Of a stretch of 24,349 nt of DNA, positions 4,801 to 22,185 are shown piece by piece. The notes under the pieces are model-generated. The model made no database searches, was not told the DNA's origin, and worked only from the letters and a program-made list of their open reading frames with translations. Numbering within the stretch: position 1 is the stretch's first letter; each line of letters opens with the position of its first letter. The position numbers and the translations under genes are program-made. Source of the DNA: Ectocarpus siliculosus (Eukaryota; Sar; Phaeophyceae; Ectocarpales; Ectocarpaceae). The stretch spans positions 2,978-27,326 of the forward strand of contig FN648555.1 of the NCBI GenBank assembly GCA_000310025.1. Reading direction: 5' to 3'.

Positions 4801-5397
4801 CCCGCTCGAGTCCACGCCCAGGTGCATCACACCCCGACCGCTGGAAACACCTTCCACGACGCTCATACCGTTCATCGAAACGGTCGCATCGTGGTCCGTC
4901 GAGGCGAAGACCGCAGATTGGGCAGCAGGAGGTTCCGCGTCGCGCGCGCTCGAGTCCACTCCTTGCTGTATGACCACCTTGCCGCTGGCAGCACCAGGCA
5001 CGGCGCTCATACCGTTCAACGAGGCGGTCGCGGCCCGGTTATCACCGTGCTGCAGAGAACTCTGCCTCGGAATGCCACCCCACGCGGTTGCTCGCGAGCC
5101 CGCCACCTCGCCACTAACGACAACAGGGGTGTGCACAGTGCCGATAGCGTTGAAACTCGGGCGGCGGGGTGGACCACCGTCGCCTTCCGTCCCGTCCGGC
5201 CCAATGCTCTTGTCCAACGGAGGGTACGGTCCCGAACGAGCAGCTGTGAGGAGGTGGGGTTTGCGAACGCCTTCACGAGTATCTCTCGCGCAGGCAAAGA
5301 CATTGTGCCTCAACATGGCGCACCACGTCCCACACCACTGCCGTCGGGTGAAGGTGCGAATGTAGTCTCGGGCCTCCGGGCTTTCGCCTTTCAACTG
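1834..5397 (-). CDS. Exon 32: long repeat-rich C-terminal tail
   Basis: A single 3,564-base exon encodes 1,187 residues and ends in TAG. The acceptor TTTCTGCCACAG is strong. The first 60 residues (QLKGESPEARDYIRTFTRR onward) are non-repetitive and Cys/Arg-containing. Next come five copies of a 48-residue unit with GVDSSGRD, SAVFASTDHDA and SLNGMSVVEG. The rest is Ser/Gly/Asp/Arg-rich with seven spaced copies of a motif like PVxSDLPRRxSGYS, and two copies of VRLGDGLGVSVGSS near the end. No catalytic domain or membrane span is visible. It is probably cytosolic and disordered; the function is unknown. Confidence 0.8.
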   Translation of the reverse strand, partial: QLKGESPEARDYIRTFTRRQWCGTWCAMLRHNVFACARDTREGVRKPHLLTAARSGPYPPLDKSIGPDGTEGDGGPPRRPSFNAIGTVHTPVVVSGEVAGSRATAWGGIPRQSSLQHGDNRAATASLNGMSAVPGAASGKVVIQQGVDSSARDAEPPAAQSAVFASTDHDATVSMNGMSVVEGVSSGRGVMHLGVDSSGRDTEPPAPPSAVFTSTGRDAAASLNSMRVVEGVCSGKEIIQQGVDSSGRDTELPARPSAVFTSTGRDATASLNGMSVVEGVSSGKEIIQQGVDSSGHYAEPLATQSAVFASTDHDAAISINGMSVVEGISSGRDVIHQGVDSSGRGRDPRVAPCASHSSDFIPTDVDDDKRERVSVKASSVFGSSGGGTCTVQAGASGRGLMTGDGLGGADHSRGASATAPCRHDVGPTNISSAKERVLRFQNTLFISSSDTASESSSAAKGGSSRSIIRRGESNEHENYTPSPKETGATGVGSDQISGAGRVGGGRKGEPKLAFLRSRPPVEKDVPRRRGVAGLALAAATNAVPSATVPESESTTIDDEKLDGDEGADESMDSSGRGNPKGPFQLPRGARGSTEIDVSEDILPAICDSPAASEFLSADSDKQQTRAGHHHGGSRRKFGGAFPRLSLTSRNNPTESSFPRRRSADAWNHPVDESMNSLRASIQEEEDGGASGIGAGNGGGKSDMNTEEEDDLPRVDVTASEENSNRGESGKGESGLWGLKNKAPVAYDLPRRSSGYSADSSGRADGSRGQFLPWREETGDVWVGNDPDSTGATACEGRERSISGARSTSVFAGLMGQVARPLESDRPRRRGSMETSLVRGRAVLPGEDLSKSSGASAEDVDSSSGFVVSASRRAGGSNNVSRDLGWPAGSKGKTPVASDLPRRTSGYSADTSAHSVGELDVSGGRAFQEEEHTADRIAFGIRSDAKPGVDSARQGSRGNPVASGGRKSLFPTLVGYNHAPVESDLPRRRASEYSGAAEPRVDGAMGGGADTDKAAADLSIGTSDVDGSREQRRDGARWGLGRRAPIASDHPRRSSVCSSGPAHAVAVLASQGSSRHDDAGLPESFVFAEDYTSVRLGDGLGVSVGSSMLESGESGSFVRGWSGRTQSARRMHSPRHGDVEPEVSTDGLSFTRGPTAVRSGHGLGISIGSSIGEIDGYDHDLGDLKDQA

Positions 5398-8300
5398 CTG
5401 TGGCAGAAACACACACAAGAAAGCGTTTTTTTCGTGTTAAACTGTGCTTGAAGTCAACGAGCTGACCTGACCCGCAACACGAAACGAACGATTCTTGCTA
5501 ATCGTCCAACTTTCAGTTCTTGTAAACGCTCTAATGCTTGTCTACCTACTGGTGTGTCATCTTTCAAGAGCCCGTTCAAGATTCACAATCCCGGGTCACA
5601 CAGACCAACTAATGTACAGCGCATGCCTTCAAAACTAGCGCGAGAATGCTCAGCAGGTACTTTCCCTCGACGATACTCACCAATCAAGGGCCAATTCCTT
5701 TGCTAGGGTACACAGCGAAATGCGCTACATAGCTGAGACTTGGAACTCAAAACCGAAGGGATACCGACCGACACAAGCCGAGGGAAATCACCGTAACACG
5801 CGAGAACGGGTTGTACGACGAAAGAAAAGCATGCACGCTACTGTATTAAACAAGAGCATTTCGTGTTCGCACACCATGCGTTGGTAACGCTATGCAGACG
5901 TCCACAATACCTGCTGCCCGGTCTTGCCCAAGGCTTTTCGTATGCGGTTGCGAATAGCTCCCATCACGATTGTCACAGCGTCCAAGTACACTGGGATTAC
6001 CAGAGCTGTGCAGGGTGTCAAACAACAACACAAGCGCCAACGGTAGGGTTGTCAAGTGAACATGGTTCAGAACTTTCATTATCGAAACTCTAAAAACTCC
6101 CCGTGCAGACGTTGTAGAGTATTTGAGCCGCGAGAGCAGCAAGGACAGGAGCTTGGGCTAGCTTAGCCGACAAAGGATAAACGCAAAAGAAATCTGCGGG
6201 TCTCGCGAGAATCGAGTCACGGTGTCGGTACCATGAGATACGCCCTGCAAACCACCATTTCCTGCAACTGCTGAGCTGCCGAACGGCTTCTGCCAGACTG
6301 ATTGTCTGGAGCTTAAGACTTCCATCAACAACAAGACCGCGTTGACTCACCGCAGAGCGAGACTATCTGTAGAACACCGACCGCAGAGTTCACATCTGTC
6401 GCTCTGCTTGTCCCCTCCCACTTGAGGGCTGCAACCGCCAATAATCCCGTGCTGACGGCATCGATGGCCACGATGCATGCTCCAATACCGTTGATCACAC
6501 TGCATTTTTCCGGACATAATCAAGAGGAACGGACGGCGGTATTAAGCGCTCACTCGAAAAGAAGGAGCAAATAAATATCGAACTGACCCGCATGCAGTCT
6601 GGTTGAACGCACACGCAGCGTTGTTTGAGCTTTGGCAACGCAGATATCCGTCTGAGGGGTAGAGCATCACGGAGCAGCGACGCGCAGAAGCAGCAACGGA
6701 CCGTTCTCGAACTAGTCCCAGTCCAAACGCACCGAACATGATTTTCAACCTCAGCTGGTCGGGCGGAATAGGCAGGGTAGAAGTTGTAAGGGCTACAAGG
6801 AAAGACGCAACGTACTGAACCGCTGGGGCGTGTAGAACGAGGCTATGCGATGTTGCAAAAAGGGGGATTCGTCTCGACCAGTGCGGTTACGGTCGTGAAG
6901 CACTACGCGTGCTACGGACTGCGACGGTCGCTCTTCAGCGTGGGTCGACACGCCCGGCTCACCTGTTCGCAAAAGGCTTGAGGCACACAAGGATGAGAAA
7001 CATCGCCGACTGTAGGCCGCAGAACAGAAGCAGCTGCACGTTGCTGTTGTCTATCATGACCCCGACCAAGGCGATGGAGGCCCACTGCAGAAAGGAGGAC
7101 GGGAAAGCGCAAGAGGCAGTGGCGAAGGACTTCCTGGACTCAAGCAGCGGTTGCCAAGGTAGTATTGGCCGGGGTACCAGTCTTTTGTTGTTCGCAGACA
7201 ACGTTCAAGCCTGGTAATCCGCTGCGGCAAGTGCGCCACAAGGCCACCGATCCCACGCTTTCCAGCTTTACCGAATTGATAACCCTACGTTGCGCAACAT
7301 ATGGAAGCCACAATTTTCAACTGCAACGTATGGCGGAACACGTTCATTCAGCGTTACTCGTCACGGCTACATGCCCGAAACCGATATCGCAGTCCCACCC
7401 ACCTCCACAAGCGAGATCACAATGAACCAAGTGCCCCGCTTGGTGTAGTCAACAAATACCGGCTCGAACCCGATCCGGAACCAGTCGCCCTCTCGTGTGA
7501 TGTTGCGATTCGGCGTTTGAACTGTCTCCCACTGCCCCTTGTCTGCCCAGGAAAAGAGGCTGTAGTTTTCGGCCCAGCTGCTCTTGAAATGGGACAGGAA
7601 GCCACCTGATTGAGAAAAATTGCAGACGGGCGTTGCGCTTGCTATTTCGAGCACCAAGCCCAAGTATGGAGGTGCTGTAGGGGCGCGAGTAACAACACGA
7701 GAGTAGATGACGTGTAGGCAATCGTGTGCAGACGGGTTTGTGCGTGCTGCCCCACCATCCCACCGCCCCACCATTGCTACGACCCCAGTGTTCCACGGCC
7801 GTGCTAACCTCGTCAAACGGGGTGGGCGTACCTCTGCAGTTGGGTGCGTTGCCATTGGTGCCGTCTTCGTCGTACGTCTTGAATATCAGCAGCTCGTCGG
7901 GACGAACCCGGACGAACAGAGTGCGGACGACCGTCGCGAACATCAACAGCGGGTACAAGACCTGTGTTTTTCACAAAACCGGCATCAGAAAAAAAACATT
8001 CCGAAGCATGGGAAAGGGTGAGTATTTGTGAAACGCAACGGTGTGACTTGGAAAAACGAACTACGCACGACCGGTTCGTATCACCGTCGTGTCGGCATCG
8101 TGCACGCAATCATTCTTGGCGTTCATCTACCAGGGCTTTCACCACCTTGAAAGCATGGAAACATGTGTAGCAGTAGAACGTAGCCGGTGTGCCGTCGTCC
8201 AGGATGTTGAGGATCGCGATATAACCTACTCCAACGGAAATCCCTCGAAACTGCTGTACGTGGCTGCGATAGAACCTAATGAACAAACAACCAGTATTCC

Positions 8301-11300
8301 TTCGAACACGTCATGGCAAGCAAAACAAAATCTCTGGAGCCCATCAAGGAGCTCTCAAGCTCACCATCGCTGCTATCGCCGTGTAAAACATCTCTGGGCA
8401 CTCAGAGTTCCGAATGGCAGACGCGAACGACGCCACGGCCCCCTCGAACGCGAAAAACAGGAACACCAGTTCCACGTGCGGGAAATGGAGCCAGGCCGAT
8501 GTCGAGTGCTCCCGGCACGTCGCCACCGGGCTCAGCTGATTCTCGCTGCACATGGGCACCAATCCTCGTCCTCCTTCCTCCTCGTCAGTTCTCTGTGACC
8601 TGTCACGTACAAGGGATGGGTTTCTAGAGCCGAACGGGCTGGGATCGGTGAGACCCGGGTTCGTCCGGCGTATCATCCTTCCGCCCCTGAATCGCGCCAG
8701 CAGCTCGCTGATAGGGGTGTTACGACGGCGTGCTCCGTCTAGGTTCTCTCGGGCGCGTTTCTGCATCGGCAATGTTTGATTGAAGACAGGGGGATTGGAA
8801 ACAGGGCAGGGAAATTGATGTGTTGCATTGTTCACGAACGAAATTTGCAACGGATAATCGCCTTGACATTGACCATAACGGCGGGATTTTAGTTGGGTGC
8901 CAAACTTGGCCCTCGTGTCATGACTGGGTGCTCACTGCCGGGGGGCTAGAGCGGAGTTACGATGCACTACACCCATTCCGGGGAGCTACGGTAACCCACC
9001 TAGTCGGTGACAGAAAAAACACGCAGATTATATATTTGTTCACCTTCGTCAACCAGAGTGCCTCTGCTCCGGACACCACCGCCACGTGAAGGAAGAATAT
9101 GGCAAGGAGAATGCCTAGCACCAGCGCAAGATTGCCCACGAATACCAAGGCGCCGATTTCACTTGCCCCAGTCTCGAAGATGCACCCGTCGGAGACGATG
9201 TCTTCGCCGATTTCCGCTGGCCACCACAGATTGATCCATCTTTTTAGTTTGGAAAAAGGAGTTGGGGACAGAGTAGAAAATATCAGGGTGGGCGAAGGGA
9301 TCTTGTGGAGGTTTCCTGTGGAAACGAAAGAATTGCCTGGAAATGCGGCGCACTTGACTCCGTCCTGTAGAGAAGGGCCTTGGGGCTACCACTATGTATT
9401 CCGCACGCAAGCCGGCGATAGGTGGTGTTTAGCACTTGTGAACAACGCTCCTAAGGCAAACTTGATCCTACACAAAGAAAGGAAGAGATAGCTCTAAACA
9501 TGCCAACACCGGCAACTGGGAAACCTGGAAAGAAAGACAGATATCGAGGACGGCCGCCAGTATCCGTTGCTTATCACACCTGAGACCGACGACGAAGTCG
9601 GCGAGCCAGGAACCTTGGCTTACGACATAGTCAACCAGCGACAGCATCGCAAGAAACTGGAGTTGCGTCATGAGCACGAACGCCAAAGTTGCCGAAGGCC
9701 TGCGGTGGCTGACGCGGGAGGGGCTATCTCCTTCGCCCGTCTCACCAACGGGCGCTACAGCACCAGCCTGCGAGAGACCAAGCAATGGTAGCATCGGATA
9801 TGGCAGTGCAGCACCCGGCAAAGACGACACGAAAAAGAAAAAAAATACGCTGTCTACGTTGCGCCAAGTTCGACCCTTCCTATCGGCGACGACCGCAAAT
9901 GCTCCATGAAAACGAGAACTACGCTTTAGGAAGCTGCAACGTAGTTGTGGCTTCTACCGGACACAGTACTACCAACACGGCGCCATTGCAATTAACGCCT
10001 CCATGGAATACCACTGTATCCGTCGTGGGACAGTAGATCCAATCTAGAATGGACCAAAATGTTGAGAACAAAACTGAACAGAGCAGACCCACCGTGCCCA
10101 CAAGGCCGCGGGAGCCGTTCGCAGATGCCCCCCCCGCTCCGCCCGCAGATGACACTGACCCATTGCCGTGGTTCGACCTGACGATGCTGCCGGTGGACAC
10201 CACCATTATGCCGATCAGGGCAAAGATGGACACCGCTCCAGCGGCTGTTGTCCCAGGGCTTTCTACCTAACGCGTGGTGGGAAATATGGAGCAAGGCAAG
10301 AGCGAGGTACCGGGCCAGGATACGAACGCTCGTCGTTGAAAGCCCCAGTGTTTGAGCAACATGGTATGGACCTCAAAGCGCTCACCGATACAAAACTGGT
10401 ACATGCCAAAGCCTTCAGCAATACACCTTCAGGTATACCCTGTGACACACCCGGCTAAATGGCAATCTCACCGGCGTTAGCAGCTAAATCTAAGCGGTTT
10501 CCATCATACCTCTCCAGTGCTACCCGAAGGTGCAGGAGTAGCTCCAGGGGAAGCCGTGGCCCCGGGAGCATACGTTGCTCCAGGAGATGGTGTTCGAATC
10601 GTGAGGGCCGGGGCCCATGTTTCACCGGGTGCAAGGGTAGTTCCTGGTGCAATCGTGATGATCGGCGCCACAGTAGCTCCAGGGGAAGCCGTGGCCCCGG
10701 GGGCAGACGTTGCTCCAGGAGACGGTGTTCGAATCGTGAGGGCCGGGGCCCACGTTTCACCTGGTGCAAGGGTAGTTCCTGGTGCGATGGTGGTGATCGG
10801 CGCCACAGAAGCTCCAGGGGAAGCCGTGGCCCCGGGGGCAGACGTTGCTCCAGGAGACGGTGTTCGAATCGTGAGGGCCGGGGCCCACGTTTCACCGGGT
10901 GCAAGGGTAGTTCCTGGTGCGATGGTGGTGATCGGCGCCACTGTAGCTCCAGGGGAAGCCGTGGCCCCGGGAGCATACGTTGCTCCAGGAGACGGTGTTC
11001 GAATCGTGAGGGCCGGGGCCCATGTTTCACCGGGTGCAAGGATAGTTCCTGGTGCAATCGTGATGATCGGCGCCACAGTAGCTCCAGGGGAAGCCGTGGC
11101 CCCGGGGGCAGACGTTGCTCCAGGAGACGGTGTTCGAATCGTGAGGGCCGGGGCCCACGTTTCACCGGGTGCAAGGGTAGTTCCTGGTGCGATGGTGGTG
11201 ATCGGCGCCACAGTAGCTCCAGGGGAAGCCGTCGCTCCAGGTGCAACAGTAACTGCAACAGCGCCGGCGACAGCGAAAATAGCACACCAAAAAACAACGG

Positions 11301-14300
11301 ACGACCAGCGGATAGGCAGCAGCAAACGGCACCTTAACGAAACGCGAATGCTTTCATTTTTCAGCGTACCGGGTGCGCACGTAGGGTCAAGTGGTGGCGT
11401 GATTACTAGTCATTGCCTATCGACGAGGATCGTCAGAAAAGCGAAACGAAGAAAAAAATAGAGCGTCGGCACGAAACAACACATCACTGAGCCCCTGCAC
11501 GAAAAGCAATACGAGGCTCCACTCGCTAGGACGTACACGGGTAACGTGTGAATCGCGCGGTTTCGCATGTAGAAAGCCAACAGCTAGGGGAAATCCGCAC
11601 CAACTCAACCATACGAGACCTTCTTCTGCCGGGCTTGGGGTCTGAACCGAAGGACTAAGAGGGTCGACGGCCGATTGCGGAACCGGCGTTTGTACCGGCA
11701 CAGGCGGCTCGGGCACAGGTGGAAGGGTCCGGTCAAACACAGGTGACATAGTCTCCCCAGGCGAAGGGGGGAGGGTTTCCTCTGACATTGGTGCCAGGGA
11801 TGGGGACGGTATGGGTGGGGTCGTTTGAGAAAGGGTAGGTGGCACAGTTGACTCGGGCACAGGTGGAAGGGTGCGGTCAAACACAGGTGACATAGTCTCC
11901 CCAGGCGATGGGGGAAAGGTTTCCTCTGAAGTCGGTGACAGGGTTTGGAATGCTACGGGAGGGGTCGTTTGCAAGAGGGTAGGTGGTACACTTGACTCGG
12001 GCACAGGTGGAAGGGTGCGGTCAAACACAGGTGACATAGTCTCCCCAGGCGATGGGGGGAGGGTTTCCTCTGAAGTCGGTGAGAGGGTTTGGAATGTTGC
12101 GGGAGGGGTCGTTTGCGAGAGGGTAGGTGGCACACTTGACTCGGGCACAGGTGGAAGGGTGCGGTCAATAGGTGACATAGTCTCCCCAGGTGAAGGCTGA
12201 AGCGTTTCCTCTGAATTCGGTGACAGGGTTTGGAATGCTACGGGAGGGGTCGATTGCGAGAGGGTAGGTGGAACAGTTGACTCGGGCACAGGTGGAAGCA
12301 CAGGTGACATAGTCTCCCCAGGTAAAGGCTGAAGCGTTTCCTCTGAATTCGGTGACAGGGTTTGGAATGCTACGGGAGGGGTCGATTGCGAGAGGGTAGG
12401 TGGCACACTTGACTCGGGCACAGGTGGAAGCACAGGTGACATAGTCTCCCCAGGTGAAGGCTGAAGCGTTTCCTCTGAATTCGGTGACAGGGTGTGGAAT
12501 GCTACGGGAGGGGCCGTTCGCGAGAGGGTAGGTGGCACAGTTGACTCGGGCGCAGGTGGAAGGGTCCGGTCAAACACAGGTGACACAGTCTCCCCAGGTG
12601 AAGGCTGAAGGGTTTCCTCTGAAATCGGTGACGGTGTTTGGAACGGAATGGGTGGGGGCCGTTTGCGAGAGGGTAGGGGGCATAGTTGGCTCGGGCACAG
12701 GTGAAAGGGTTTGCGGCGGAGACGGAGATGGCGTGGGTAGTGGCACCACGTCTGCATCCCGCAAACATGATCGACGGCAAACACGACGGACACGACGAAG
12801 GTGAAATATCAGAGACGGGTAAACTATTCGACACTGAAACGTAAGTGACACGGCCACAACTTGACGCAGAGCAAACGTTAATCTAACTCCCTGGCCCATT
12901 TCAGCTGATGAAGACGGCCACTCAAGCTACTCGGTATGAGAGCGAGTTCCAACTGACACCGGCGACAAGTCATCATTTAGCAGTCGGCGCTACACTTTGA
13001 CATGCCTACTTCTGACCACACCCCTCACTACCACCCGCTAGTCACTCACCGCGGGTAGGGGCGGGAGTCAACGGTGCCTGGGTCAACATCGGTCCCGGTG
13101 TTGGCGCCACGAAAGGCGCCGGAGAGGGTGCAGGGCTTCGCCTCCGTGTATCTTACGTAGATAGATTGTTCGTCGGGAGTAGCGACGCGAAAAAGAGTGA
13201 AGCGGGAACACGGCAGTTAGCATCAGTACATTCGGGTCCAAGTCCACAATAGGAAACTGAGGACGGTCCTAAAGCTACTCGGTATGAGAGCGAGTTCCAA
13301 CTGACACCGGCGACAATTCCAACCTCACAGCATTCCGTGCCACACCCTGACATGCTGACACTATTGATCACACACCCCTACCACCGTGGCGCTTGTCACT
13401 CACCGCGGGTAGGGGCTGGGGTCAACGGTGCCTGGGTCAACATCGGTCCCGGTGTTGGCGCCACGAAAGGCGCCGGAGTGGGTGCAGGGCTTCGCCTCCG
13501 TGTATCTTACGTAGATAGATTGTTCGTCGGGAATAGCGACGCGAAAAAGAGTGAAGGGGGAACACGGCAGTTAGCATCAGTACATTCGGGTCCAAGTCCA
13601 CAATAGGAAACTGAGGACGGTCCTAAAGCTACTCGGTATGAGAGCGAGTTCCAACTGACACCGGCGACAAGTCCAACCTCACAGCATTCCGTGCCACACC
13701 CTGACATGCTGACACTATTGATCACACACCCCTACCACCGTGGCGCTTGTCACTCACCGCGGGAAGGGGCTGGGGTCAACGGTGCCTGGGTCAACATCGG
13801 TCCCGGTGTTGGCGCCACGAAAGGCGCCGGAGAGGGTGCAGGGCTTCGCCTCCGTGTATCTTACGTAGATAGATTGTTCGTCGGGAGTAGCGACGCGAAA
13901 AAGAGTGAAGCGGGAACACGGCAGTTAGCATCAGTACATTCGGGTCCAAGTCCACAATAGGAAACTGAGGACGGTCCTAAAGCTACTCGGTATGAGAGCG
14001 AGTTCCAACTGACACCGGCGACAAGTCCAACCTCACAGCATTCCGTGCCACACCCTGACATGCTGACACTATTGATCACACACCCCTACCACCGTGGCGC
14101 TTGTCACTCACCGCGGGTAGGGGCTGGGGTCAACGGTGCCTGGGTCAACATCGGTCCCGGTGTTGGCGCCACGAAAGGCGCCGGAGTGGGTGCAGGGCTT
14201 CGCCTCCGTGTATCTTACGTAGATAGATTGTTCGTCGGGAGTAGCGACGCGAAAAAGAGTGAAGCGGGAACACGGCAGTTAGCATCAGTACATTCGGGTC

Positions 14301-17300
14301 CAAGTCCACAATAGGAAACTGAGGACGGTCCTAAAGCTACTCGGCGGAGAGCGAGTTCCAACTGATACCGGCGACAATTCCAACATCATAGCATTCCGTG
14401 CCACACCCTGACATGCTGATACTACCGATCACCCCCCCACTAGCACCGTGGCGCTTGTCACTCACCGCGGGTAGGGGCGGGGGTCAACGGTGGTTCGGTG
14501 AAGATCGGTCCCGGTGTTGGCGCCACGAAAGGCGCCGGAGAGGGTGCAGGGCTTGGCCTCCGTGTATCTTACGTAGATAGATGGTTCGCCGGGAGTAGCG
14601 ACGTGACAAAGAGTGAAACGAGAACATGGCAGTTAGCATCAGCACACGTCCAAGTCCACAATAGGAAACTAAGGATGGCCCTAAAGCTACTCGGCGGAGA
14701 GCGAGTTCCAACTGACACCGGTGACAAATCCAATCTCATGCCAGTCCGTGCTACACCTAGACATGCTGATACTACTGATCACGCACCCCCTATCACCGTA
14801 GCGCTTGTCACTCACCGCGGGTAGGGGCGGGGGTCAACGGTGGTTCCGTGAAGATCGGTCCCGGTGTTGGCGCCACGAAAGGCGCCGGAGTGGGCGCAGG
14901 GCTTGGCCTCGGTGTGTCTTAGTGATCGATGGTTCGTCGGGGGTGGCGACGTGACGAAGAGTGAGCGAGAACATGACAGTTAGCATGAGTACCTTCGGGT
15001 CCACATCCAACACAGACAACTGTGCCGGGCTAGTACACTGTCCACGTTGAATCATAGGTACAAATCATAACCAGCAACAAGTCCTACTGAGCACATTCAA
15101 CCCATCAAGTGCGACAATCACTCCGTACAATACCTTGTGGGCCGCTACAGAAAACAATTGACTATCCAGCGCAGGAAAATAGCGGACAAAACTGAAGAAG
15201 GTCGGTCACCTTCTACGCAGCATGTGGAATCGTCGCAACCGCCCTCGACACCGCACGTGACTTCACCACCAACCGGAGAAAATCCAGCCGGGCACAACGT
15301 GTCGCCAACATCGTTCAAGTACGAATCGCATGTGTACTCCGGGGCCATCGTGGGCGGTTGTGTGGCATCTGCAACGCAAACAAATGTCAGCATGAGAAAG
15401 GCAGGGAAGGCAAATTACACACTTGACTATCACCAATCCGTCGCCGCAAACGGTGACAAGGAGACCGCGAACGGACACCCAAGTGATCTGACCAATGGAC
15501 ACAATATCCGTTGCAACAACGTGAAGAACAGGGATACAAAATCCGGCAATACCGGCCAGGCACCTTAGCCACACTAGCCATCTCGGGCGTGTTCAGTTTG
15601 ATCCCAACCCCGTTCGGCCAACCCTATCGGATGGACAAACAATGACGGTACACAACAGCCATCCTCACCTTCATCGCAGCACGTCGCCTCGTCGCACTCC
15701 TCTCCGATGCCGCATGACACGCTCTCGGCATTGGCGATAGCACTGAACCCGGATGGACACAGGCTTGCACCGTTCACCGCATCCACGAACGAGTCGCACA
15801 TGAGCTCCACGTCTGGGAAGAATCGCAACAGCGAGACGACGACCAGACACCGCAACGGCATGAGCAACTCGACAAGCATGGAGAGGCTTTCATCAACAAT
15901 GGACAAATCACCCACACCAGTCGTCTCGGGCGGGTTCGGTTTGATTCCAAAACGTTGCCGCCAACGGTATTGGATGGGCAAAACAACGCATCGTACCAAA
16001 CAGCCATGCCCACCTTCATCGCAGCACGTCGCCTCGTCGCACTCCTCTCCGACGCCGCATGAGACGCTCTCAGCATTGGCGATAGCACTGAACCCGGATG
16101 GACACAAGCTTGCACCGCTCGCCGCATCCACGAACGAGTCGCACATGAGCTCCACGTCTGGACAAAACCGCAACAGTGAGACGACAACCACCAGATATCC
16201 CAAACGCGTGAAGGCTTTTGTCGACGTCCGGCGGCACGGTCACACTAGCCATCTCGGGCGGGTTCGGTTCGATTCCAACATCCTTCCGCCAACATTATCG
16301 GATGGGACAAACGATGCATCGTACCAAACAGCCATCCCCACCATCATCGCAGCACGTCGCCTCGTCGCACTCCTCTCCGACGCCGCATGAGACGCCCCCA
16401 GCATTGGCGATAGCACTGAACCCGGATGGACACAAGCTTGCACCGCTCGCCGCATCCACGAACGAGTCGCACATAAGCTCCACGTCTGGACAAAACCGCA
16501 ACAGTGAGACGACAACCACCAGATATCCCAAACGCATGAAGGCTTTTGTCGACGTCCGGCGGCGCGGTCACACTAGCCATCTCGGGCGGGTTCGGTTCGA
16601 TTCCAACATCCTTCCGCCAACATTATCGGATGGGCCAAGCAATGCATCGTAGCCAACAGCCATCCCCACCTTCATCGCAGCACGTCGCCTCGTCACACTC
16701 CTCTCCGATGCCGCACGACACGCTCTCGGCATTGGCGATAGCACTGAACCCGGCTGGACACAGGCTTGCACCGCTCTCCGCATCCACGAGCGAGTCGCAC
16801 ATAAGTTCCACATCTGGACAAAACCGCAACAGTGAGACGACAACCACCAGATATCCCAAACGCGTGAAGGCTTTTGTCGACGTCCGGCGGTCACACAAGC
16901 CATCTCGGGCGGGTTCGGTTTGATGCCAACATCCTTCCGACATTGTCGGATGAGACAAACAACGCATTGTAGCCAACAACCATCCCCACCTTCATCGCAG
17001 CACGTCGCCTCGTCGCACTCCTCTCCGATGCCGCATGACACGCTCTCGGCATTGGCGATAGCACTGAACCCGGATGGACACAGGCTTGCACCGCTCGCCG
17101 CATCCACGAACGAGTCGCACGTGTAGTCGATGGCTTGTGTCGACGCGGATTCACAGATTTTGGGGAGGTGGGGGGTACCCGGCAACAAAAACAGTCAGTT
17201 ACATTTCGACTTCGACGGCGTTGGACACTCTGTCGACAATACCATGTAGCAGCTGGTGTTGTCACCAGTACCATCAAGAAGATGGGTCCATCGTGCATTG

Positions 17301-20300
17301 TGCGTGGTGCGCGTGAACCAAATTAACTTGGCAAGCATGTTGACGTTGCTGTCTTGGGGTCGGTGGATACGCGTCTCTCACGTTGGCAACACGTGTCGTC
17401 GCTGCATTCGGCCATGGAGGAAGAGCTGCTGAGCCTCCTTCCCTCGCCATCGTCATCGTCGTCGCTGTATGCATAGATGTAGCAAGAACCTCCCAGGTTC
17501 GTGGATACGTCGTCACACGGCCAGTCTTCGCATCGTTCCTCGTCTACATCTATTGTCAGAGCACGAGCAACAAGCGCCGGGAACGAGCGGATGTTGAGCG
17601 TTGGCGGCGTGGCATACCTCGTCTACTACTGATACAACGCGATTGAGCGAATCGATCGAATCGGGGAGTACCGTCTGCTCCGCGCGGGAGGGCTACCGGT
17701 GTTGGTGAGAAGCCAAACCCTGACATAGCCGAGACTACCATACACTCACTGACTCGTACCTAACGGCGTATAAAAGAACTTCAACAGGCCTGCTGCAAAT
17801 GTACCAACGATCTTTGTTGTGCGGGTGAAGAACAAAGGCGTTTCGGAAGTGCTCTTCGGAGAGTATCGACTGTCATCTCTGGTGGATTCGCTTTCATTCC
17901 AACATGTTCCCCCCACCGATGCCATTTGCGCCACACAACGCACGGTAATCGACGGCTATCCTCACCTTCTTCGCAGCACGTCGCCTCGTCACACGCTACT
18001 CCGACGCCGCAGGAGATGCTTTCGCTATTGGCAATCGCACGGTACCCGGATGGACACAGGCTTGCACCGCTCTCGGTGCCCACGAACGAGTCGCATGTAT
18101 AGTCGATGACTTGTGTCGACGCCGGAATCCGCAGTTTTGAAGCGATGGGGGGTACGAGGCAACGCAAACGCTCAGCTACAACTTTGACTTAGACCGCGTA
18201 GGAGAACGGGTCGACAAAACCGTGTAGCAACTTGTGTTTTCACGGTATAATCGAGAAGATGGATCAAACGGGCAATGTGCACGCGGTGCGCATCAACCAA
18301 AATGATATTTCGATGTCGGCGGGTACTCGACCCAGCAAGCGTGAGACGCGGTGATGCCAAAGGTCCATGGTGGGAGTGAGGTAGAACTCGTACACATGCG
18401 GTCCCAAGGGCATGGTCCCGTTTCGGTCGGTGAAACCATCAACCAGCACTCTGTCTACATGTACATCCAAAACCTACAAGAAGACTGATTGGCAGGCGGA
18501 GGCAGCATGTCAAATGCTGCGCCTACCGACCGTAGTTATGCAAGGCTGAGTTTCACTTGCTACCCATCCTCCTCCCTCCCGAATTGCGATTCATGTACCT
18601 TAATCCACCCACTCGGCTATCGACACCAGCTGATGAGTCTACGCGTGACGGTTCGTCGATGCGAGCGATGGTTGACTTGACGCTCTTGATCGAACGTTTC
18701 ATCAAACGGTGGGTCTCACACAAGAAAGCACGGACCACAACCTGTCCGAATAGACTGCCGTACAGGCTTCCCGTTTTCGTGCAAAAGTCGATCGTTTTCT
18801 GCACGTGGTACAGTCTACAAAGGTGAGGTTAGTTGGCCATGGTAGTTTCAAAGGGGCAACAACGGGGGAGAGAAAAAATTGGAAACCACACGTCGCGCAG
18901 TAGGGCAGATGGCATCATCGCAAACAGGTGCGCACGTTGCCGTCGCGGAGGTTGTTCAGATGCCATCTGCTGGTTTCTGGATGATTGCATCATGATCAAG
19001 ATTCGGGATACCTGGTTCTGCGTTGAGGAGATCAAAACCAGGGCGATATCTACAGTCTCTTTACGGCTCTCACGTTGACAACACGTGTCGTCGCTGCATT
19101 CGCCCAGAGACGTGGAAGAAGAGCTGCTGAGCCTCCTTCTCTCGCCATCGTCATCGTCGTCGCAAGAACCTTCTAGGTTCGTGGATACATCGTCACACGG
19201 CCAGTCTTCGCATCGTGCCTCCTCTGTTGTCAGAGCACGAGCACCAAACGCCCGGAATGAGCGGGTGTCGAGCATTGGCGGCGTACCTGCACTCCGCAAC
19301 ATATCTCGCCTACTTCTTTGGAGACAATGCAGTTGAACGTATCGATCGAATCAAGGTGTATCGTCTGCTCTGCCCGGGAGGGCTACCGGTTTGGCGAGGT
19401 GCTGAACCCTGACATGGCCGCGACCAGATCAGACTAACTGCCTCGTACCTAACGGGCGATATACAATTTGGACAGGGCTACTGCAAGTGGACCAACGAAC
19501 TCTGTTGTGAGGGCGAGAGTGTTGAAAAACAAAGCAGTGTCACACGTTCTGTTCGGTGGGATAAACTTGGGAGAATATGATTCCAACATCTTCCTCCCAC
19601 CGATGTAGTATGGGCCAAACAACGCACGGTGTAGCCGACAGTCATGCTCACCTTCGCAGCAAGGCGTCACGTCACACTCTACTCCGATGCCGCACGAGAC
19701 GCTTTCGCCAAAGGAAATCGCAACGTACCCGGACGGACATAGGCTTGCACCGCTCTCGGCGTCCACGAACGAGTCGCACGTGTAGTCGATGACTTGTGTC
19801 GACGCCGGAATCCGAAGTTTTCGGGAAGGCGAGGGGTACGCGGCAACAAAAACAGTCAAATACAAGTTTGAGTTCCAAGACGTTAGAAAACGGGTTGACG
19901 AAACCGTGCAATAGCTGTGTTCTCACTGATGTCAGTCAACAATATGGACAAATCGGGGTTTTGCACATGTCGGTGGATATTTGTCTCAACATCCATGAAG
20001 CGCAGTGACGCCGATCGACAACGGTGGGAGATAGGTAGAGCTCGGAGACATACGGTCTGAACGGCACTACCCGTCAGGTTGATGAAACCATCAAACATCA
20101 CTCTGTCGATACGTGCATCAAATATAGACCGATGGGTATGCAGCGGCAGCACGTCATAGCCCCGACCACCAACCGTAGTTGTCGCTACTCAAGCTTGTGG
20201 TTCACTTGTTTATCCATCTCCTCCTCCCCTACATGCATTACTGGTACTGTGACCCGGCCACAATGATGTGGACGGCAGCTGAACAGTCTACGAGTGACTC

Positions 20301-22185
20301 GTTCGTGGATGCGAACAGCGTTGGAGTGCATGCTCTTGACAATACATACCATCAAACGGTGGTCTCATGCAAAGCAAGCAGGGACTACAAAGCTGTCCCA
20401 ATTGCCGTACAGGCCCCGCGTTTTTCGTGCAAGGGTCAATCGTTTCCAGCACTTCGTTTCCCGATAACGGGGAGGGTGCCCAACGGACTTTCGTATCATG
20501 GGCATGCGGTACAGTCTACCTAGGTGCGTTTCGCTGAGCATGGGAACAGAGACGGGGCAAGAGCGAAAATTGAGCCGTGCTGTAGTAAAAAAACGGCATC
20601 ATCGTAGAGTGGAATAACCGTGAACATTGGGGTCGCTGCGGGTGTTGTTCGGATCACCTGCTGGTTTCTGGATGGTTGCATCATGGTCAACTTCGGGATA
20701 CCTCCCCGACATGTGTCTGATACACGGGTACAAGTGCACAGCATTGCAAGCTTTGCATGCATCCGGGGGGGGAAGTGTGTTGAACCGATTTTTATGTGGT
20801 TTCGAGAGTCCGACCAAAGACATCGCCGAGAGAGAGAGAGGCGCGGTGGGAGATGACCCCTTCCGTGGGCTCTAGATCGGATCTATCGTCACCGTGGACA
20901 CAAGGATAGGTATGGACTGCGAGCGACGACAGTAAAAGCGTTGTAAAACAAAATACGAACATCGCTACACAATAATACAAACCTTCACAGGCTGGTTCTG
21001 CATTGAGGAGATCAAACCTGGGGGGTAGCTATAGGTTCATTGGGGCTCTCACGTTGGCAACACGTGTCGTCGCTGCATTCGCCCAGAGACGTGGAAGAAG
21101 AGCTGCTGAGCTTCCTCCTATCGTCGTAATTGTAGTTGTAGCAAGAACCTTCCAGGTTCGTGGATACATCGTCACACTGCCAGTCTTCGCATCGCGCGTC
21201 TGTTGTCAGAGTACGAGCAATAAGCCCCCGGAATGAGCAGGTGTTGAGCGTTGGCGGCGTACCTGCACTCAGCAACATATATCGTCTACTACCGATACAA
21301 AGGAATAGAACGTATCGATCGAATCGAGGTGTATCGGCTGCTCTGCACGACAGGGTTACCGAACTGGCGAGGCGCTGTACCGTGGCATGGCTGAGACTAC
21401 GTTGCACAAACTGCCTCGTATCTGACGGGCGAAAAGATTTTGGACAGGGCATGTGTACCAACTAATCGTTTTTGCGAGGGCGAGTTGGCTGAAGAATATA
21501 CGCGTATAACAGTTGATGCTCGGTGCGAATGGAGTTTGATCTCTGCTGGATTCGCCTTCATTCCAGCGCCTCCCCCGACCATTGTCGTCTTGCCCAAAAA
21601 CGCACCTTAGCCAACAGCCATCCTCACCTTCTTCGCAGCACGTCGCCTCGTCACACAGTTCCCCAATGCCACAAGGGATGCTTTCGTCAATAGTCAAACT
21701 GTAGCCGGATGGACACAGGCTTGCACCACTCGCATCCACGAACGAGTCGCAATAGTAGGTGATGGCTGGTGTCGACGCCAGAGTCCGCAGTTTTCGAGGG
21801 GGGGGGGGGGGCGGCGGCAACAGAAACAGTCAATTACACTTTGATTTGGAACGTGTTGGAGCAAGGGGCGACAAAACATGTAGCATCTGGCGTGCTCTCT
21901 GGAATTTCTCAGGGAAGATGGATAAATCGTGGAGTTTGCACGTGGCGCGCCTAAACCAAATCAACTCGGCATCGATGTCGACTTTGCTGTTTTGATGGTG
22001 GGTAGTTACTCGTGTCTCACGTTGGCAACACGTGTCGTCGCTACATTCGCCCAAAAACGTGGAAGAAGAGCTGATGAGCCTCCTACTCCAACCCGGTTCG
22101 CCTTCGTAGCCGTCGTAGCAGGGACCTTCCAGGTTCACCGATGTATCGCCACACGGCCAGTCTTCGCATCGTTCCTCGTCCTCAA
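1834..22185 (-). CDS. Giant mosaic membrane protein gene, 32 visible exons, 5' end missing
   Basis: Exons were chained on the minus strand by GT-AG sites and phase. Summed exon length is 9,837 bases; removing two leading partial-codon bases and one extra base in exon 20 leaves exactly 3,278 codons including the stop. The order is cysteine-rich modules (exons 1-13), proline-rich stalk exons (14-19), two long Pro/Thr repeat exons (20-21), about ten hydrophobic spans (22-31) and a long tail (32). The membrane core resembles stramenopile proteins usually labelled TRP-like, related to fungal Pkd2/FLC channels; that is recalled family resemblance, not a search result. The likely place is the plasma membrane with the repeats outside. 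No start codon or signal peptide was found above 22185. Two adjacent genes cannot be excluded, but continuous phase argues for one. Confidence 0.72.
4371..5033 (-). repeat. Five-copy 144-base repeat in the C-terminal tail exon
   Basis: The plus-strand landmark CGCTCGA recurs at 4371, 4515, 4659, 4803 and 4947, exactly 144 bases apart. Each unit encodes GVDSS(G/A)RD through SVVEGVSSG. Copies differ at many positions, mostly keeping the reading frame and the unit length. Confidence 0.92.
5911..6005 (-). CDS. Exon 31: transmembrane span 10 and basic juxtamembrane segment
   Basis: 95 bases, acceptor CCCTGCACAG, donor CAG|GTATTG. LVIPVYLDAVTIVMGAI ends the hydrophobic part; RNRIRKALGKTGQQ is basic and fits a cytosolic membrane exit. 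Confidence 0.72.
6351..6499 (-). CDS. Exon 30: transmembrane span 9
   Basis: 149 bases, acceptor AAAAATGCAG, donor GCG|GTGAGT. VINGIGACIVAIDAVSTGLL continues AVAALKW, then a short polar loop and AVGVLQIVSLC, which starts the next span. Confidence 0.68.
6702..6842 (-). CDS. Exon 29: transmembrane span 8
   Basis: 141 bases if the donor is CG|GTCCGT. LVLHAPAVQYVASFLVALTT is followed by PIPPDQLRLKIMFGAFGLG. The acceptor CATCGCATAG is fixed by phase. The donor is weak; it was chosen because it is the only nearby GT giving phase 2 for exon 30. A better-looking GTGCGT at 6732 would need a different acceptor for exon 30. Confidence 0.55.
6963..7084 (-). CDS. Exon 28: transmembrane spans 6-7
   Basis: 122 bases, acceptor TCCTTTCTGCAG, donor CAG|GTGAGC. 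WASIALVGVMIDNSN completes the span begun in exon 27; VQLLLFCGLQSAMFLILVCL forms the next, followed by KPFAN. The split codon gives Ser with exon 29. Confidence 0.72.
7403..7605 (-). CDS. Exon 27: Trp-rich loop leading to transmembrane span 6
   Basis: 203 bases, acceptor TTTCTCAATCAG, donor GAG|GTGGGT. GFLSHFKSSWAENYSLFSWA, then DWFRIGFEPVFVDYTKRG and the hydrophobic TWFIVISLVE. The FEPxFVDxxxRG segment immediately before a span is the most family-like motif of the membrane core. Confidence 0.72.
7772..7961 (-). CDS. Exon 26: transmembrane span 5 and loop
   Basis: VLYPLLMFATVVRTLFVRVR is followed by PDELLIFKTYDEDG and a loop with CRGTPTPFDEV. Acceptor AAAAACACAG. The end is uncertain: donors at 7771 (GTGGGG) and 7780 (GTAGCA, exon ending 7781) both give phase 1 and join in frame to exon 27; neither is strong. 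Confidence 0.65.
8365..8760 (-). CDS. Exon 25: basic loop and transmembrane span 4
   Basis: 396 bases (132 codons), phase 0-0, acceptor GCCGATGCAG, donor ATG|GTGAGC. It begins with a highly basic stretch (KRARENL, ARRRNTP, ARFRGGRMIRR), then Glu/Gly-rich sequence, a cysteine pair (PMCSEN, ATCREH) and the span VELVFLFFAFEGAVASFASA. It ends ECPEMFYTAIAAM, which continues hydrophobic into exon 26. The basic loop suggests this side faces the cytosol. Confidence 0.72.
9044..9239 (-). CDS. Exon 24: extracytosolic loop and transmembrane span 3
   Basis: 196 bases, acceptor CTAAAAAG, donor AAG|GTGAAC. INLWWPAEIGEDIVSDGC is followed by a strongly hydrophobic LVFVGNLALVLGILLAIFFL continuing through HVAVV. 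The lone cysteine after DG could pair with the GNxL-side loop of a neighbouring segment, but that is not testable here. Confidence 0.7.
9580..9767 (-). CDS. Exon 23: transmembrane span 2
   Basis: 188 bases, acceptor TGGTCTCTCGCAG, donor CAG|GTGTGA. A polar Gly/Ser/Arg segment precedes LAFVLMTQLQFLAMLSLVDY and a following SWLADFVVGL. The split codon joins exon 24 to give R-W-I-N-L-W. The LQFLAMLSLVDY/INLW pairing is what I associate with stramenopile TRP-like proteins (recalled, not searched). Confidence 0.68.
10093..10266 (-). CDS. Exon 22: first transmembrane span
   Basis: 174 bases, phase 0-0. After a short VESPGTTAA lead comes a hydrophobic span, GAVSIFALIGIMVVSTGSIV, then a Gly/Ser/Ala/Asn-rich loop. 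Acceptor CGCGTTAG, donor ACG|GTGGGT. The donor is chosen because it restores phase 0 with exon 23; a longer version is possible. Confidence 0.6.
10510..11252 (-). CDS. Exon 21: Pro/Gly/Ala/Thr stalk repeats
   Basis: 743 bases, acceptor after GCTGTTGCAG, donor GAG|GTATGA. It encodes five complete and one partial copy of a 45-residue unit with APGATASPGATVAP, ITTIAPGTTLAPGE and TWAPALTIRTPSPG. No cysteine or aromatic core except Trp; a rod-like or disordered, potentially glycosylated linker. Both strands are open across the repeat, but only the minus frame joins in phase to the flanking exons. Confidence 0.68.
10538..11240 (-). repeat. Coding minisatellite, 135-base unit (45 residues)
   Basis: Unit starts at 10538, 10673, 10808, 10943, 11078 and a partial at 11213. 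Copies differ by very few bases, and alternating variants (AYV versus ADV codon, GTGATGATCGG versus GTGGTGATCGG) recur in a higher-order pattern. Confidence 0.92.
11620..12751 (-). CDS. Exon 20: Pro/Ser/Thr stalk repeats, with a +1 frameshift
   Basis: Acceptor after GGGATGCAG, donor GAAG|GTCTCG. The N-terminal part reads PTPSPSPPQTLSPVPEP; most of the exon is a 48-residue repeat containing PPVPES, VPPTLSQTTPP, FQTLSP, SEETLPPSPGETMSP and FDRTL. Three central copies lack part or all of the FDRT segment. The exon is 1,132 bases, one more than a multiple of three, although both neighbouring phases demand a multiple of three. The extra base is in a G run at 12654-12658, where the reading frame switches. 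This may be a sequencing error or a real disabling change. The composition suggests a mucin-like O-glycosylated stalk. Confidence 0.65.
11690..12715 (-). repeat. Coding minisatellite, 144-base unit (48 residues)
   Basis: About seven to eight copies inside exon 20. Landmarks on the plus strand are GACTCGGGCACAGGTGGAAG and ACAGGTGACATAGTCTCCCC. Three central copies are shortened by small in-frame deletions of 6 or 12 bases. Confidence 0.88.
13050..13151 (-). CDS. Exon 19: proline-rich stalk exon, copy 6 of 6
   Basis: 102 bases. Last copy; its split codon joins to exon 20 as GAC (Asp), so the proline-rich theme continues directly into the next repeat type. Confidence 0.7.
13404..13505 (-). CDS. 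Exon 18: proline-rich stalk exon, copy 5 of 6
   Basis: 102 bases, same sites. Essentially identical to exon 16 at the protein level. Confidence 0.7.
13758..13859 (-). CDS. Exon 17: proline-rich stalk exon, copy 4 of 6
   Basis: 102 bases. One base change near the donor turns the final Thr-Arg into Ser-Arg. The donor GTGAGTGAC is intact. Confidence 0.7.
14112..14213 (-). CDS. Exon 16: proline-rich stalk exon, copy 3 of 6
   Basis: 102 bases. TRRRSPAPTPAPFVAPTPG then PMLTQAPLTPAP. Exactly 354 bases from exons 15 and 17, with introns almost unchanged. Confidence 0.7.
14466..14567 (-). CDS. Exon 15: proline-rich stalk exon, copy 2 of 6
   Basis: 102 bases. The PIFTEPPLTPAP end is shared with exon 14, showing that these two form a subfamily distinct from exons 16-19. 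Acceptor CTACGTAAG, donor CGCG|GTGAGTGAC. Confidence 0.7.
14816..14917 (-). CDS. Exon 14: proline-rich stalk exon, copy 1 of 6
   Basis: 102 bases, phase 1-1, 34 residues. It reads TPRPSPAPTPAPFVAPTPG, then a variable PIFTEPPLTPAP end. Donor CGCG|GTGAGTGAC is a textbook site. No cysteines; probably an extended, O-glycosylated linker (inference). Confidence 0.7.
15210..15368 (-). CDS. Exon 13: diverged A-type module
   Basis: 159 bases, phase 1-1. After a Pro/Thr-rich lead (ATQPPTMAPE) come YTCDSYLND, LCPAGFSPV, VTCGVEGGCDDSTCC. All six cysteines are kept, but the sequence is clearly older than its neighbours. The acceptor TTGCGTTGCAG is strong and the donor is GAAG|GTGACC. It links the cysteine-rich head to the proline-rich stalk. 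Confidence 0.75.
15669..15812 (-). CDS. Exon 12: A-type module
   Basis: 144 bases. Differs by DAVNGASLC in place of DAASGASLC. Acceptor TTCCCAG, donor GAAG|GTGAGG. The 345-base spacing to exon 11 is slightly longer than in the rest of the array. Confidence 0.77.
16014..16157 (-). CDS. Exon 11: A-type module
   Basis: 144 bases. It reads VELMCDSFVDAASGASLC, then IANAESVSCGVG and EECDEATCCDE. Acceptor TGTCCAG, donor GAAG|GTGGGC. It is taken as the representative A module. Confidence 0.78.
16342..16485 (-). CDS. Exon 10: A-type module
   Basis: 144 bases. Same frame and sites as exon 9; reads IANAGGVSCGVG instead of IANAESVSCGIG and ends CCDD. Exons 10 and 11 and their flanking introns are near-identical at exactly 328-base spacing. 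Confidence 0.77.
16670..16813 (-). CDS. Exon 9: A-type module
   Basis: 144 bases, phase 1-1. VELMCDSLVD is followed by LCPAGFSAIANAES and CGIGEECDEATCCDE. It carries Ser-to-Ala at the usual CPSG site. Donor GAAG|GTGGGG. Confidence 0.77.
16990..17133 (-). CDS. Exon 8: A-type module
   Basis: 144 bases, first of a run of A exons. It uses the ACACAAG acceptor context shared with exons 4 and 6 and begins IDYTCDSFVD, whereas exons 9-12 begin VELMCDS from a different acceptor (TTCCCAG or TGTCCAG type). It thus marks the join between the B/A alternating region and the A-only array. Donor GAAG|GTGGGG. Confidence 0.75.
17382..17549 (-). CDS. Exon 7: B-type module
   Basis: 168 bases, the longest B copy. 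It keeps RCEDWPCDDVSTNL, the serine run and ECSDDTCC, with an extended Tyr/Ser/Asp insert. Acceptor GACAATAG, donor CAAC|GTGAGA. This is the last B module; only A modules follow. Confidence 0.7.
17966..18109 (-). CDS. Exon 6: A-type module
   Basis: 144 bases. Acceptor after GTCGACACAAG, donor GAAG|GTGAGG. Cysteine contexts are YTCDSFVG, LCPSGYRAIAN, ISCGVGVACDEATCC. The intron upstream (18110-19073) holds relic coding-like sequence described separately. Confidence 0.72.
18264..18470 (-). other. Relic coding-like segment C, copy 1 (intronic)
   Basis: An open minus-strand stretch reads VHVDRVLVDGFTDRNGTMP, then LGPHVYEFYLTPTMDLWHH. It has a good acceptor-like TTCTTGTAG in front, but this would open the frame in phase 0, which does not fit the phase 1 exons on either side. 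I therefore take it as a remnant of another gene or a discarded exon inside intron 5. I do not recognise the domain. Confidence 0.35.
19074..19223 (-). CDS. Exon 5: B-type module
   Basis: 150 bases, phase 1-1. It is a clear B copy: ARCEDWPCDDVSTNLEGSC, a run of five Asp, ERRRLSSSSSTSLG, then ECSDDTCCQ. Acceptor GACAACAG, donor CAAC|GTGAGA. The acid-then-basic-then-serine insert between cysteines 3 and 4 is the variable part of B modules. Confidence 0.7.
19652..19792 (-). CDS. Exon 4: A-type module
   Basis: 141 bases, acceptor after GTCGACACAAG, donor GAAG|GTGAGC. It starts VIDYTCDSFVDAESGASLC and ends ECDVTPCCE, so the usual DEAT before the CC pair is replaced by DVTP. All six cysteines are kept. 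The 428-base intron to exon 5 equals the length of the exon 2-3 intron, as expected from segmental duplication. Confidence 0.7.
19940..20152 (-). pseudogene. Relic coding-like segment C, copy 2, frame-broken
   Basis: Homologous to 18264-18470: ARIDRVMFDGFINLTG matches VHVDRVLVDGFTDRNG, and PYVSELYLSPT matches PHVYEFYLTPT, but the two blocks lie in different frames. The copy is therefore non-coding now. It sits in intron 3 of the main gene, in the duplicated unit 19074-21052. Confidence 0.4.
20285..20340 (+). other. Inverted fragment of an A-module exon inside an intron
   Basis: Positions 20296-20313 on the plus strand are an exact 18-base match to the sense sequence of A exons (GACTCGTTCGTGGATGCG), which elsewhere run on the minus strand. 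Similarity continues weakly on both sides, and the related copy at 18622-18672 begins with TCGACACCAG, the same bases that precede A exons at their acceptor. Confidence 0.5.
21053..21199 (-). CDS. Exon 3: B-type module
   Basis: 147 bases, phase 1-1. It reads RCEDWQCDDVSTNLEGSC, then a Tyr/Asn/Asp insert instead of the pure aspartate run of exon 5, then RRKLSSSSS and ECSDDTCC. The acceptor is GACAACAG and the donor CAAC|GTGAGA. Confidence 0.7.
21628..21765 (-). CDS. Exon 2: A-type six-cysteine module
   Basis: This 138-base exon is the shortest A copy. Cysteines fall in the contexts YYCDSFVD, LCPSGYS, IPCGIG, ELCDEATCC. The acceptor is after GTCGACACCAG and the donor is GAAG|GTGAGG. The intron upstream carries a 14-base C run (minus strand) in its pyrimidine tract. 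Two residues are missing from the loop between cysteines 2 and 3 compared with other copies. Confidence 0.68.
22021..22185 (-). CDS. Exon 1 (first visible): B-type six-cysteine module
   Basis: This 165-base phase 1-1 exon has its acceptor after GACAATAG and its donor at CAAC|GTGAGA. The module opens with RCEDWPC, has a third cysteine in a GPC context, an acidic Gly/Tyr-rich insert, a serine run, and closes with ECSDDTCC. It is the most diverged B copy, reading CGDTSVN where the others read CDDVSTN. Because it starts with two bases of a split codon, at least one further exon must lie at higher coordinates. Confidence 0.65.

What the first reader, a model, noticed from the sequence alone, without database searches (positions are those of the whole stretch)
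10510..22185. Twenty consecutive phase 1 introns in the ectodomain, mixed phases in the membrane core
Every junction from exon 1 to exon 21 is phase 1, while junctions 21 to 32 are 0, 0, 2, 0, 0, 1, 0, 2, 2, 1, 0. Symmetric 1-1 exons can be duplicated, deleted or moved without breaking frame, which is the known hallmark of exon shuffling in extracellular modules. I recall comparable repeat-per-exon organisation reported for brown algal LRR-ROCO and NB-ARC-TPR genes. Here it is seen in a membrane protein with cysteine modules.
Basis: partly seen in the sequence, partly recalled or inferred. Interest (0 to 1): 0.8.

Follow-up and report, generated by a model that had tools for sequence, protein, structure and literature searches.

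The report
Tandem exon array building surface protein
A probable brown-alga gene for a large membrane protein appears to have built its outer part by copying a few small exons, each with its neighbouring intron, over and over in place, which explains the run of equal intron phases and is the phase class best known from animal surface proteins.

Summary
A minus-strand gene model (22185 to 1834) has 20 successive phase 1 junctions before the membrane core and mixed phases after it. These are not 20 independent facts: the exons are copies of a few kinds (six-cysteine modules A and B, a Pro/Thr stalk exon C, two repeat exons). Copies carry their introns: C3-C6 are 97-100% identical in exons and 98.8-99.6% in introns, and the two introns searched for in the 189 Mb assembly matched only this locus. 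The likely process is tandem exon-plus-intron duplication inside the locus, not movement between genes. The core belongs to a family of ten loci found; core splice sites checked are conserved, while the ectodomain of the nearest paralogue (C90: 14 A-like exons, about 77 stalk exons, phase 1) shares almost no DNA similarity with this one, and A modules cluster by locus. Corrections: exon 1 is not the 5' end (assembly gap); exon 20 is open only with a downstream acceptor; the 60-nt exon 29 is doubtful. Brown-algal LRR-ROCO and Tetrahymena LRR exon arrays are reported as phase 2, so a phase 1, cysteine-module membrane version is a new variant. Function is inferred only: a tunable adhesive or sensing surface protein, perhaps TRP-like.

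The parts
22021..22185 (-).
   Evidence: phase 1 out, phase 1 acceptor; window abuts a gap
21628..21765 (-). Exon A1, six-Cys module A
21053..21199 (-). Exon B2
19652..19792 (-). Exon A2
19074..19223 (-). Exon B3
17966..18109 (-). Exon A3
17382..17549 (-). Exon B4
15669..17133 (-). Tandem exons A4-A8 (five 144-nt exons, units of 320-345 bp)
15210..15368 (-). Exon A9, divergent A module
13050..14917 (-). Tandem exons C1-C6, 102-nt Pro/Thr stalk exons in 350-354-bp units; all 1-1
11620..12618 (-). Exon 20: 44-48-aa Pro/Thr/Ser repeats (from the upstream start 12751 the frame breaks)
10510..11252 (-). Exon 21: 45-aa Ala/Pro/Thr repeats; enters phase 1, leaves phase 0
5911..10266 (-). Membrane-core exons E22-E31 (E29 at 6792-6733 doubtful), leaving in phases 0,2,0,0,1,0,2,(2),1,0
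1834..5397 (-). E32: conserved start, then long Ser-rich tail with 144-bp repeats; stop codon at 1834-1836

Best explanation
This is a gene for a large multi-pass membrane protein with a modular ectodomain: cysteine modules, then a long Pro/Thr-rich stalk, then a conserved membrane core and a long Ser-rich tail. The run of phase 1 introns arose because a few exon-plus-intron units bounded by phase 1 introns were multiplied in place by tandem duplication (unequal crossing over); every copy added to such a chain must be 3n long and inherits the phase. Shown by sequence: module-per-exon structure, copied introns, clustering of modules by locus, conserved core splice sites. Inferred: expression, topology, splicing, the recombination mechanism. 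Function (my estimate 0.35): an adhesive or wall/ligand-contacting sensor whose reach and valency are set by exon copy number, possibly with an ion-channel-like core. The confidence below is for structure and origin only; I lowered it from 0.85 to 0.82 after adding the A4-A6 result below.
For: Open 3,186-aa model with consistent phases. Young copies share introns as well as exons: C3-C6 exons JC 0-0.03, introns after C3-C5 0.004-0.012; older B exons JC 0.08-0.21 against 0.34-0.51 for B>A introns. Pooled pN/pS 0.46 (A1-A8), 0.48 (B), 0.79 (C). One C intron matched 6 places and one A intron 5, all in this gene. The nine C90 core exons built by homology have canonical sites and the same phases. 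The E23|E24 junction, E24 donor and E26 acceptor are at the same codon in 9 of 9 members examined of 10 found. C90 stalk: 77 of 79 motif sites are followed by G|GT in phase 1, 0 in phases 0 and 2. C321 and C309: 7 and 7 stalk units found by motif, all with 1-1 borders at the nearest AG and GT. The A-module tree separates window from C90, support 92/92.
Against: No transcript evidence. In A4-A6 the exons diverge more than their introns (JC 0.104-0.112 against 0.039-0.065), and C2 is closer to C3-C5 in introns (0.045-0.058) than in exons (0.083); A1-A2 exons and introns differ equally (0.274, 0.288). So exon constraint is clear only for B and for the pooled codon ratios, and unit histories are not uniform; gene conversion may contribute. 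A1-A3 differ from other A copies at dS 0.22-0.76, up to more than the paralogue cores (0.41), so that part is old. Exon 20 needs an odd acceptor. In C90 stalk sites GGT is also a glycine codon, so the donor count is less independent than it looks; its acceptors are ambiguous. Genome DNA searches are heuristic, so 'only here' is not proof. Function is untested; the TRP match is below threshold and hhalign gives 3%.
Confidence: 0.82

Rival explanations
1. Classical exon shuffling: 1-1 modules were brought in from other genes by intronic recombination.
For: Exons coincide with modules and are class 1-1.
Against: A and B matched only in this family; modules cluster by locus.
Confidence: 0.06
2. 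The array is selected as a splicing repertoire: any set of 1-1 exons can be skipped or chosen in frame, giving many ectodomain isoforms, as claimed for brown-algal ROCO. Compatible with tandem duplication as the origin.
For: 20 exons of length 3n; alternative splicing of LRR exons is reported for ROCO (PMC11378527 abstract passage).
Against: Pooled pN/pS of A and B is 0.46-0.48, not the diversifying selection claimed for ROCO; no RNA data.
Confidence: 0.2
3. Introns were inserted independently, or as introner-like mobile elements, into an already repetitive protein at identical sites.
For: Near-identical introns at matching sites.
Against: The two introns searched matched only inside this locus, 6 of 6 and 5 of 5 matches; the whole 354-bp unit is repeated.
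Confidence: 0.03
4. A decaying gene or assembly artefact: collapsed or misjoined tandem repeats beside gaps.
For: Gaps on both sides of the window; exon 20 frame break; arrays of C321 and C309 reach contig ends.
Against: 3,186 codons open with canonical sites; core dN/dS 0.33 against C90.
Confidence: 0.09

Closest known systems
Brown-algal LRR-ROCO candidate immune receptors (PMC11378527; passages seen)
   Same: Probably the same lineage; one repeat per exon, symmetric exons in tandem.
   Different: Those are 72-bp LRR exons in phase 2 on a ROC-COR protein; here phase 1 exons of 138-168 and 102 nt encode Cys modules and Pro/Thr stalks on a multi-pass core; no LRR, ROC or COR match in the Cys region or core.
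Tetrahymena LRR genes with 90-bp exon arrays (PMC6564038; passages seen)
   Same: Many exons of fixed length, extreme phase bias, ectopic recombination proposed as origin.
   Different: LRR, phase 2, thousands of genes; here ten loci, phase 1.
Metazoan class 1-1 modular extracellular proteins (Patthy, PMC8001218; passages seen)
   Same: Module = exon, 1-1, probably extracellular.
   Different: There modules move among different proteins and glycine linkers/signal-peptide borders are proposed to explain phase 1; here modules were seen only within the family and 0 of 20 junction codons are Gly, 13 are Asp.
Pfam PF06011 TRP-like channels
   Same: Weak match over E27-E30/31 of the window and C90 cores, E 0.0014-0.0024; not seen with a reversed sequence, which covered only the first 500 residues.
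   Different: 17-18 bits against a cut-off of 28.5; 1 of 9 (partial) family members matched; family loci are not among 16 PF06011 matches in the genome; profile-profile probability 3%.

Membership tests
Class 1-1 exon-shuffled extracellular proteins | Exon borders coincide with module borders | tested here: met
   (predicted exons)
Class 1-1 exon-shuffled extracellular proteins | Symmetric phase 1 introns on both sides of modules | tested here: met
   (predicted junctions)
Class 1-1 exon-shuffled extracellular proteins | Same module found in otherwise unrelated genes | tested here: not met
   A in two paralogues, B in one gene (single-sequence searches of one genome)
Class 1-1 exon-shuffled extracellular proteins | Extracellular location | not testable with these tools
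   inferred from Cys modules, Pro/Thr stalk and hydrophobic core; the 5' end is in or beyond a gap
Brown-algal LRR-ROCO exon arrays | LRR exons of 72 bp in phase 2 | tested here: not met
   exons 102 and 138-168 nt, phase 1; definition
Brown-algal LRR-ROCO exon arrays | ROC-COR domains | tested here: not met
   no such Pfam match in core or Cys region; tail exon not scanned
Brown-algal NB-ARC-TPR exon arrays | NB-ARC and TPR domains | tested here: not met
   no such Pfam match in core or Cys region; tail exon not scanned; source paper not held
PF06011 TRP-like channel | Score above Pfam gathering cut-off | tested here: not met
   17.2-18.0 of 28.5 bits
PF06011 TRP-like channel | Profile similarity to PF06011-type proteins of the same genome | tested here: inconclusive
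   hhalign 3% and 0.3% probability; tblastn hit of one of eight loci at E 0.001
PF04942 CC domain | Score above cut-off | tested here: inconclusive
   25.5 bits for the whole Cys region, cut-off 20.6, but 0 single stretches pass

The most novel reading that the evidence does not exclude
In brown algae, which evolved complex multicellularity independently of animals, a family of surface receptors expands and diversifies its ectodomain by class 1-1 exon arrays, so that exon copy number varies between individuals (or even tissues) and serves recognition or tunable adhesion: the animal phase-class rule reached independently, with a different reason for phase 1.
Probability: 0.2. Interest if true: 0.85.

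Novelty: new variant of a known kind. Interest (0 to 1): 0.55.

Why it matters
Patthy (PMC8001218, passages) asks why exon shuffling is restricted to Metazoa and why it uses class 1-1 modules. The two non-animal exon arrays whose reports I could see in part, brown-algal ROCO and Tetrahymena LRR, are phase 2. A phase 1 array of cysteine modules and stalk exons outside animals gives an independent case in which the proposed reasons (glycine linkers, signal-peptide border) can be tested; here 0 of 20 junction codons are Gly. It also marks a family whose ectodomain length may vary between strains, which long reads can measure directly.

Tried and rejected
Led nowhere or rejected: LRR_1 search of G000, no match and no control match, so uninformative. 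PDB sequence searches of core and Cys modules: best E 0.1, nothing credible. AlphaFold of module A from 9 window copies: mean pLDDT 65, pTM 0.38, no Foldseek match in PDB with E up to 10. COR-A search: one hit, whose 3-kb locus showed no LRR motif match, so no in-genome phase 2 control was obtained. A 13,684-aa open frame at C479 proved to be N where sampled. hhalign of core against PF06011-type loci: 3% and 0.3%. In C90 the automatic exon picker gave 83 of 134 overlapping rows as 1-1 and 124 of 134 with donor phase 1; acceptors are ambiguous, so I rely on donors. C157, a compact paralogue, read by eye: two Cys exons both leave in phase 1, the second enters in phase 1, the entry of the first is ambiguous. 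In C309 a second array (352 bp, 3.5 copies) was not scanned for phases. Two papers most on point, Zambounis 2012 and Teng 2023, are not held. Paper searches; their listings showed no phase 1 exon array in brown algae, which is not proof of absence.

Full report
What is there. The minus strand holds one gene model from 22185 to 1834. From the 5' side: alternating six-cysteine modules B and A (B1 A1 B2 A2 B3 A3 B4 A4), four more A copies in tandem (A5-A8), a divergent A9, six tandem 102-nt Pro/Thr stalk exons (C1-C6), one exon of 44-48-aa Pro/Thr/Ser repeats, one of 45-aa repeats, then a hydrophobic core (E22-E31) and a 1,187-codon last exon with a long Ser-rich tail. The six cysteines are invariant in 9 of 9 A and 4 of 4 B copies.

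The observation. Three corrections apply. The true 5' end is missing: the window abuts a gap of 4,743 N on that side, and the 2,977 bases before the window on the other side are all N. Exon 20 is open only from an acceptor at 12618. E29 is probably not an exon. Phases 0,0,2,0,0,1,0,2,1,0 remain for the core.

How surprising is it. The 20 junctions are copies. Any chain of in-frame tandem exons must be made of 3n exons and then keeps one phase. Counting kinds instead of copies, the chance is roughly 0.004 to 0.012, assuming equal phases. A naive Fisher test of 20 of 20 against 2 of 10 gives 8e-6 but treats copies as independent, so I do not use it.

Where the copies come from. The repeat unit is exon plus intron: TRF finds a 354-bp unit, 6.0 copies, and a 328-bp unit, 3.7 copies. 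Young C copies are about as alike in introns as in exons. Older B copies keep exons far better than the B>A introns (JC 0.08-0.21 against 0.34-0.51), which supports the B exons as real. The same contrast is weak for A1-A3 (exons 0.16-0.27, introns 0.27-0.33) and reversed for A4-A6 (exons 0.104-0.112, introns 0.039-0.065). Pooled pN/pS is 0.46, 0.48 and 0.79 for A1-A8, B and C. One C intron and one A intron matched only this locus in the assembly (6 of 6 and 5 of 5 matches; a heuristic search). That speaks against dispersed intron elements and for tandem duplication in place.

The family. Core searches find ten loci: this one, C90, two on C487, C10, C321, C157, C309, C339 and C479. The E23|E24 junction (phase 2), the E24 donor and the E26 acceptor are at the same codon in 9 of 9 members examined (C479 was not examined). 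Window and C90 cores are identical at 427 of 551 residues, dS 0.41, dN/dS 0.33. Their ectodomains are not alike: DNA similarity (matches of 60 bases or more, E up to 1e-10) ends at the 45-aa-repeat exon. C90 has 14 A-like exons plus one other Cys exon, no match to B, and 79 stalk motif sites of which 77 are followed by G|GT in phase 1; 49 of 76 spacings are 335-370 bp. It also contains blocks of several exons repeated at 93-95% identity. C321 and C309 have 353- and 317-bp arrays; the stalk exons found by motif, 7 and 7, are 1-1 at the nearest AG and GT. In the A tree the two loci separate (92/92; W_A9 is a long branch). So phase 1 stalk exons are shared by the four members looked at for them, and the A modules expanded, or were homogenised, separately in each of the two loci.

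What organism. EsV_1_7_cys gave 150 scored matches, all over the cut-off, out of 880 candidates, and none in 14 control genomes. That this domain is typical of brown algae is recalled; with it I take the genome as a brown alga, not proven.

How it works. Most likely a plasma-membrane protein that holds cysteine modules away from the cell on a Pro/Thr stalk and signals through a multi-pass core; exon copy number sets reach and valency. The window and C90 cores match PF06011 TRP weakly (E 0.0014-0.0024, below cut-off), and only when E29 is left out (one search had no match). Against it: only 1 of 9 partial members matched, the family's loci are not among the 16 PF06011 matches of the genome, and a profile comparison with eight such loci gave 3%. 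The reversed control covered the first 500 residues only. A 2024 survey reports TRP expansion in brown algae (PMC11085791, passages), which fits but does not test it. Location, glycosylation and channel function are inference.

Compared with what is known. ROCO arrays in brown algae are 72-bp exons in phase 2 (PMC11378527, passages); Tetrahymena LRR arrays are 90-bp exons in phase 2 (PMC6564038, passages); class 1-1 modules are presented as a metazoan feature (PMC8001218, passages). The present family is built like those arrays but meets the full membership tests of none. Glycine-rich linkers do not explain phase 1 here: junction residues are 13 Asp, 2 Pro, 2 Leu, 2 Glu, 1 Val.

Verdict. Observation right, shuffling reading half right: tandem exon duplication within loci. 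A new variant of a known kind, interest 0.55.

Noticed in passing
C479:957001-1002500 (L037-L039, sampled): A listed 13,684-aa open frame next to a family member is assembly gap (N) where sampled, not a gene.
   Followed up: yes
window 20290-20313, + strand: A 24-nt inverted fragment of module A (92%, E 6e-5) lies in the intron between B2 and A2.
   Followed up: partly
window 4359-5031: A 144-bp tandem repeat, 4.7 copies, in the tail exon E32.
   Followed up: no
L033 and L035 (C321, C309): 353- and 317-bp exon arrays run to or nearly to the contig ends, so copy numbers may be lower bounds.
   Followed up: partly
L029 (C487:11001-20001): Upstream of this family member's core lie long arrays of 24/48/72-bp repeats that resemble the window's exon-20 repeat.
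   Followed up: no
C90:83565-87241: Four clusters of tblastn matches to the window's single 45-aa-repeat exon, perhaps four exons: another mode of stalk turnover.
   Followed up: no
G000: EsV_1_7_cys domains are very numerous: 150 scored of 880 candidates.
   Followed up: no
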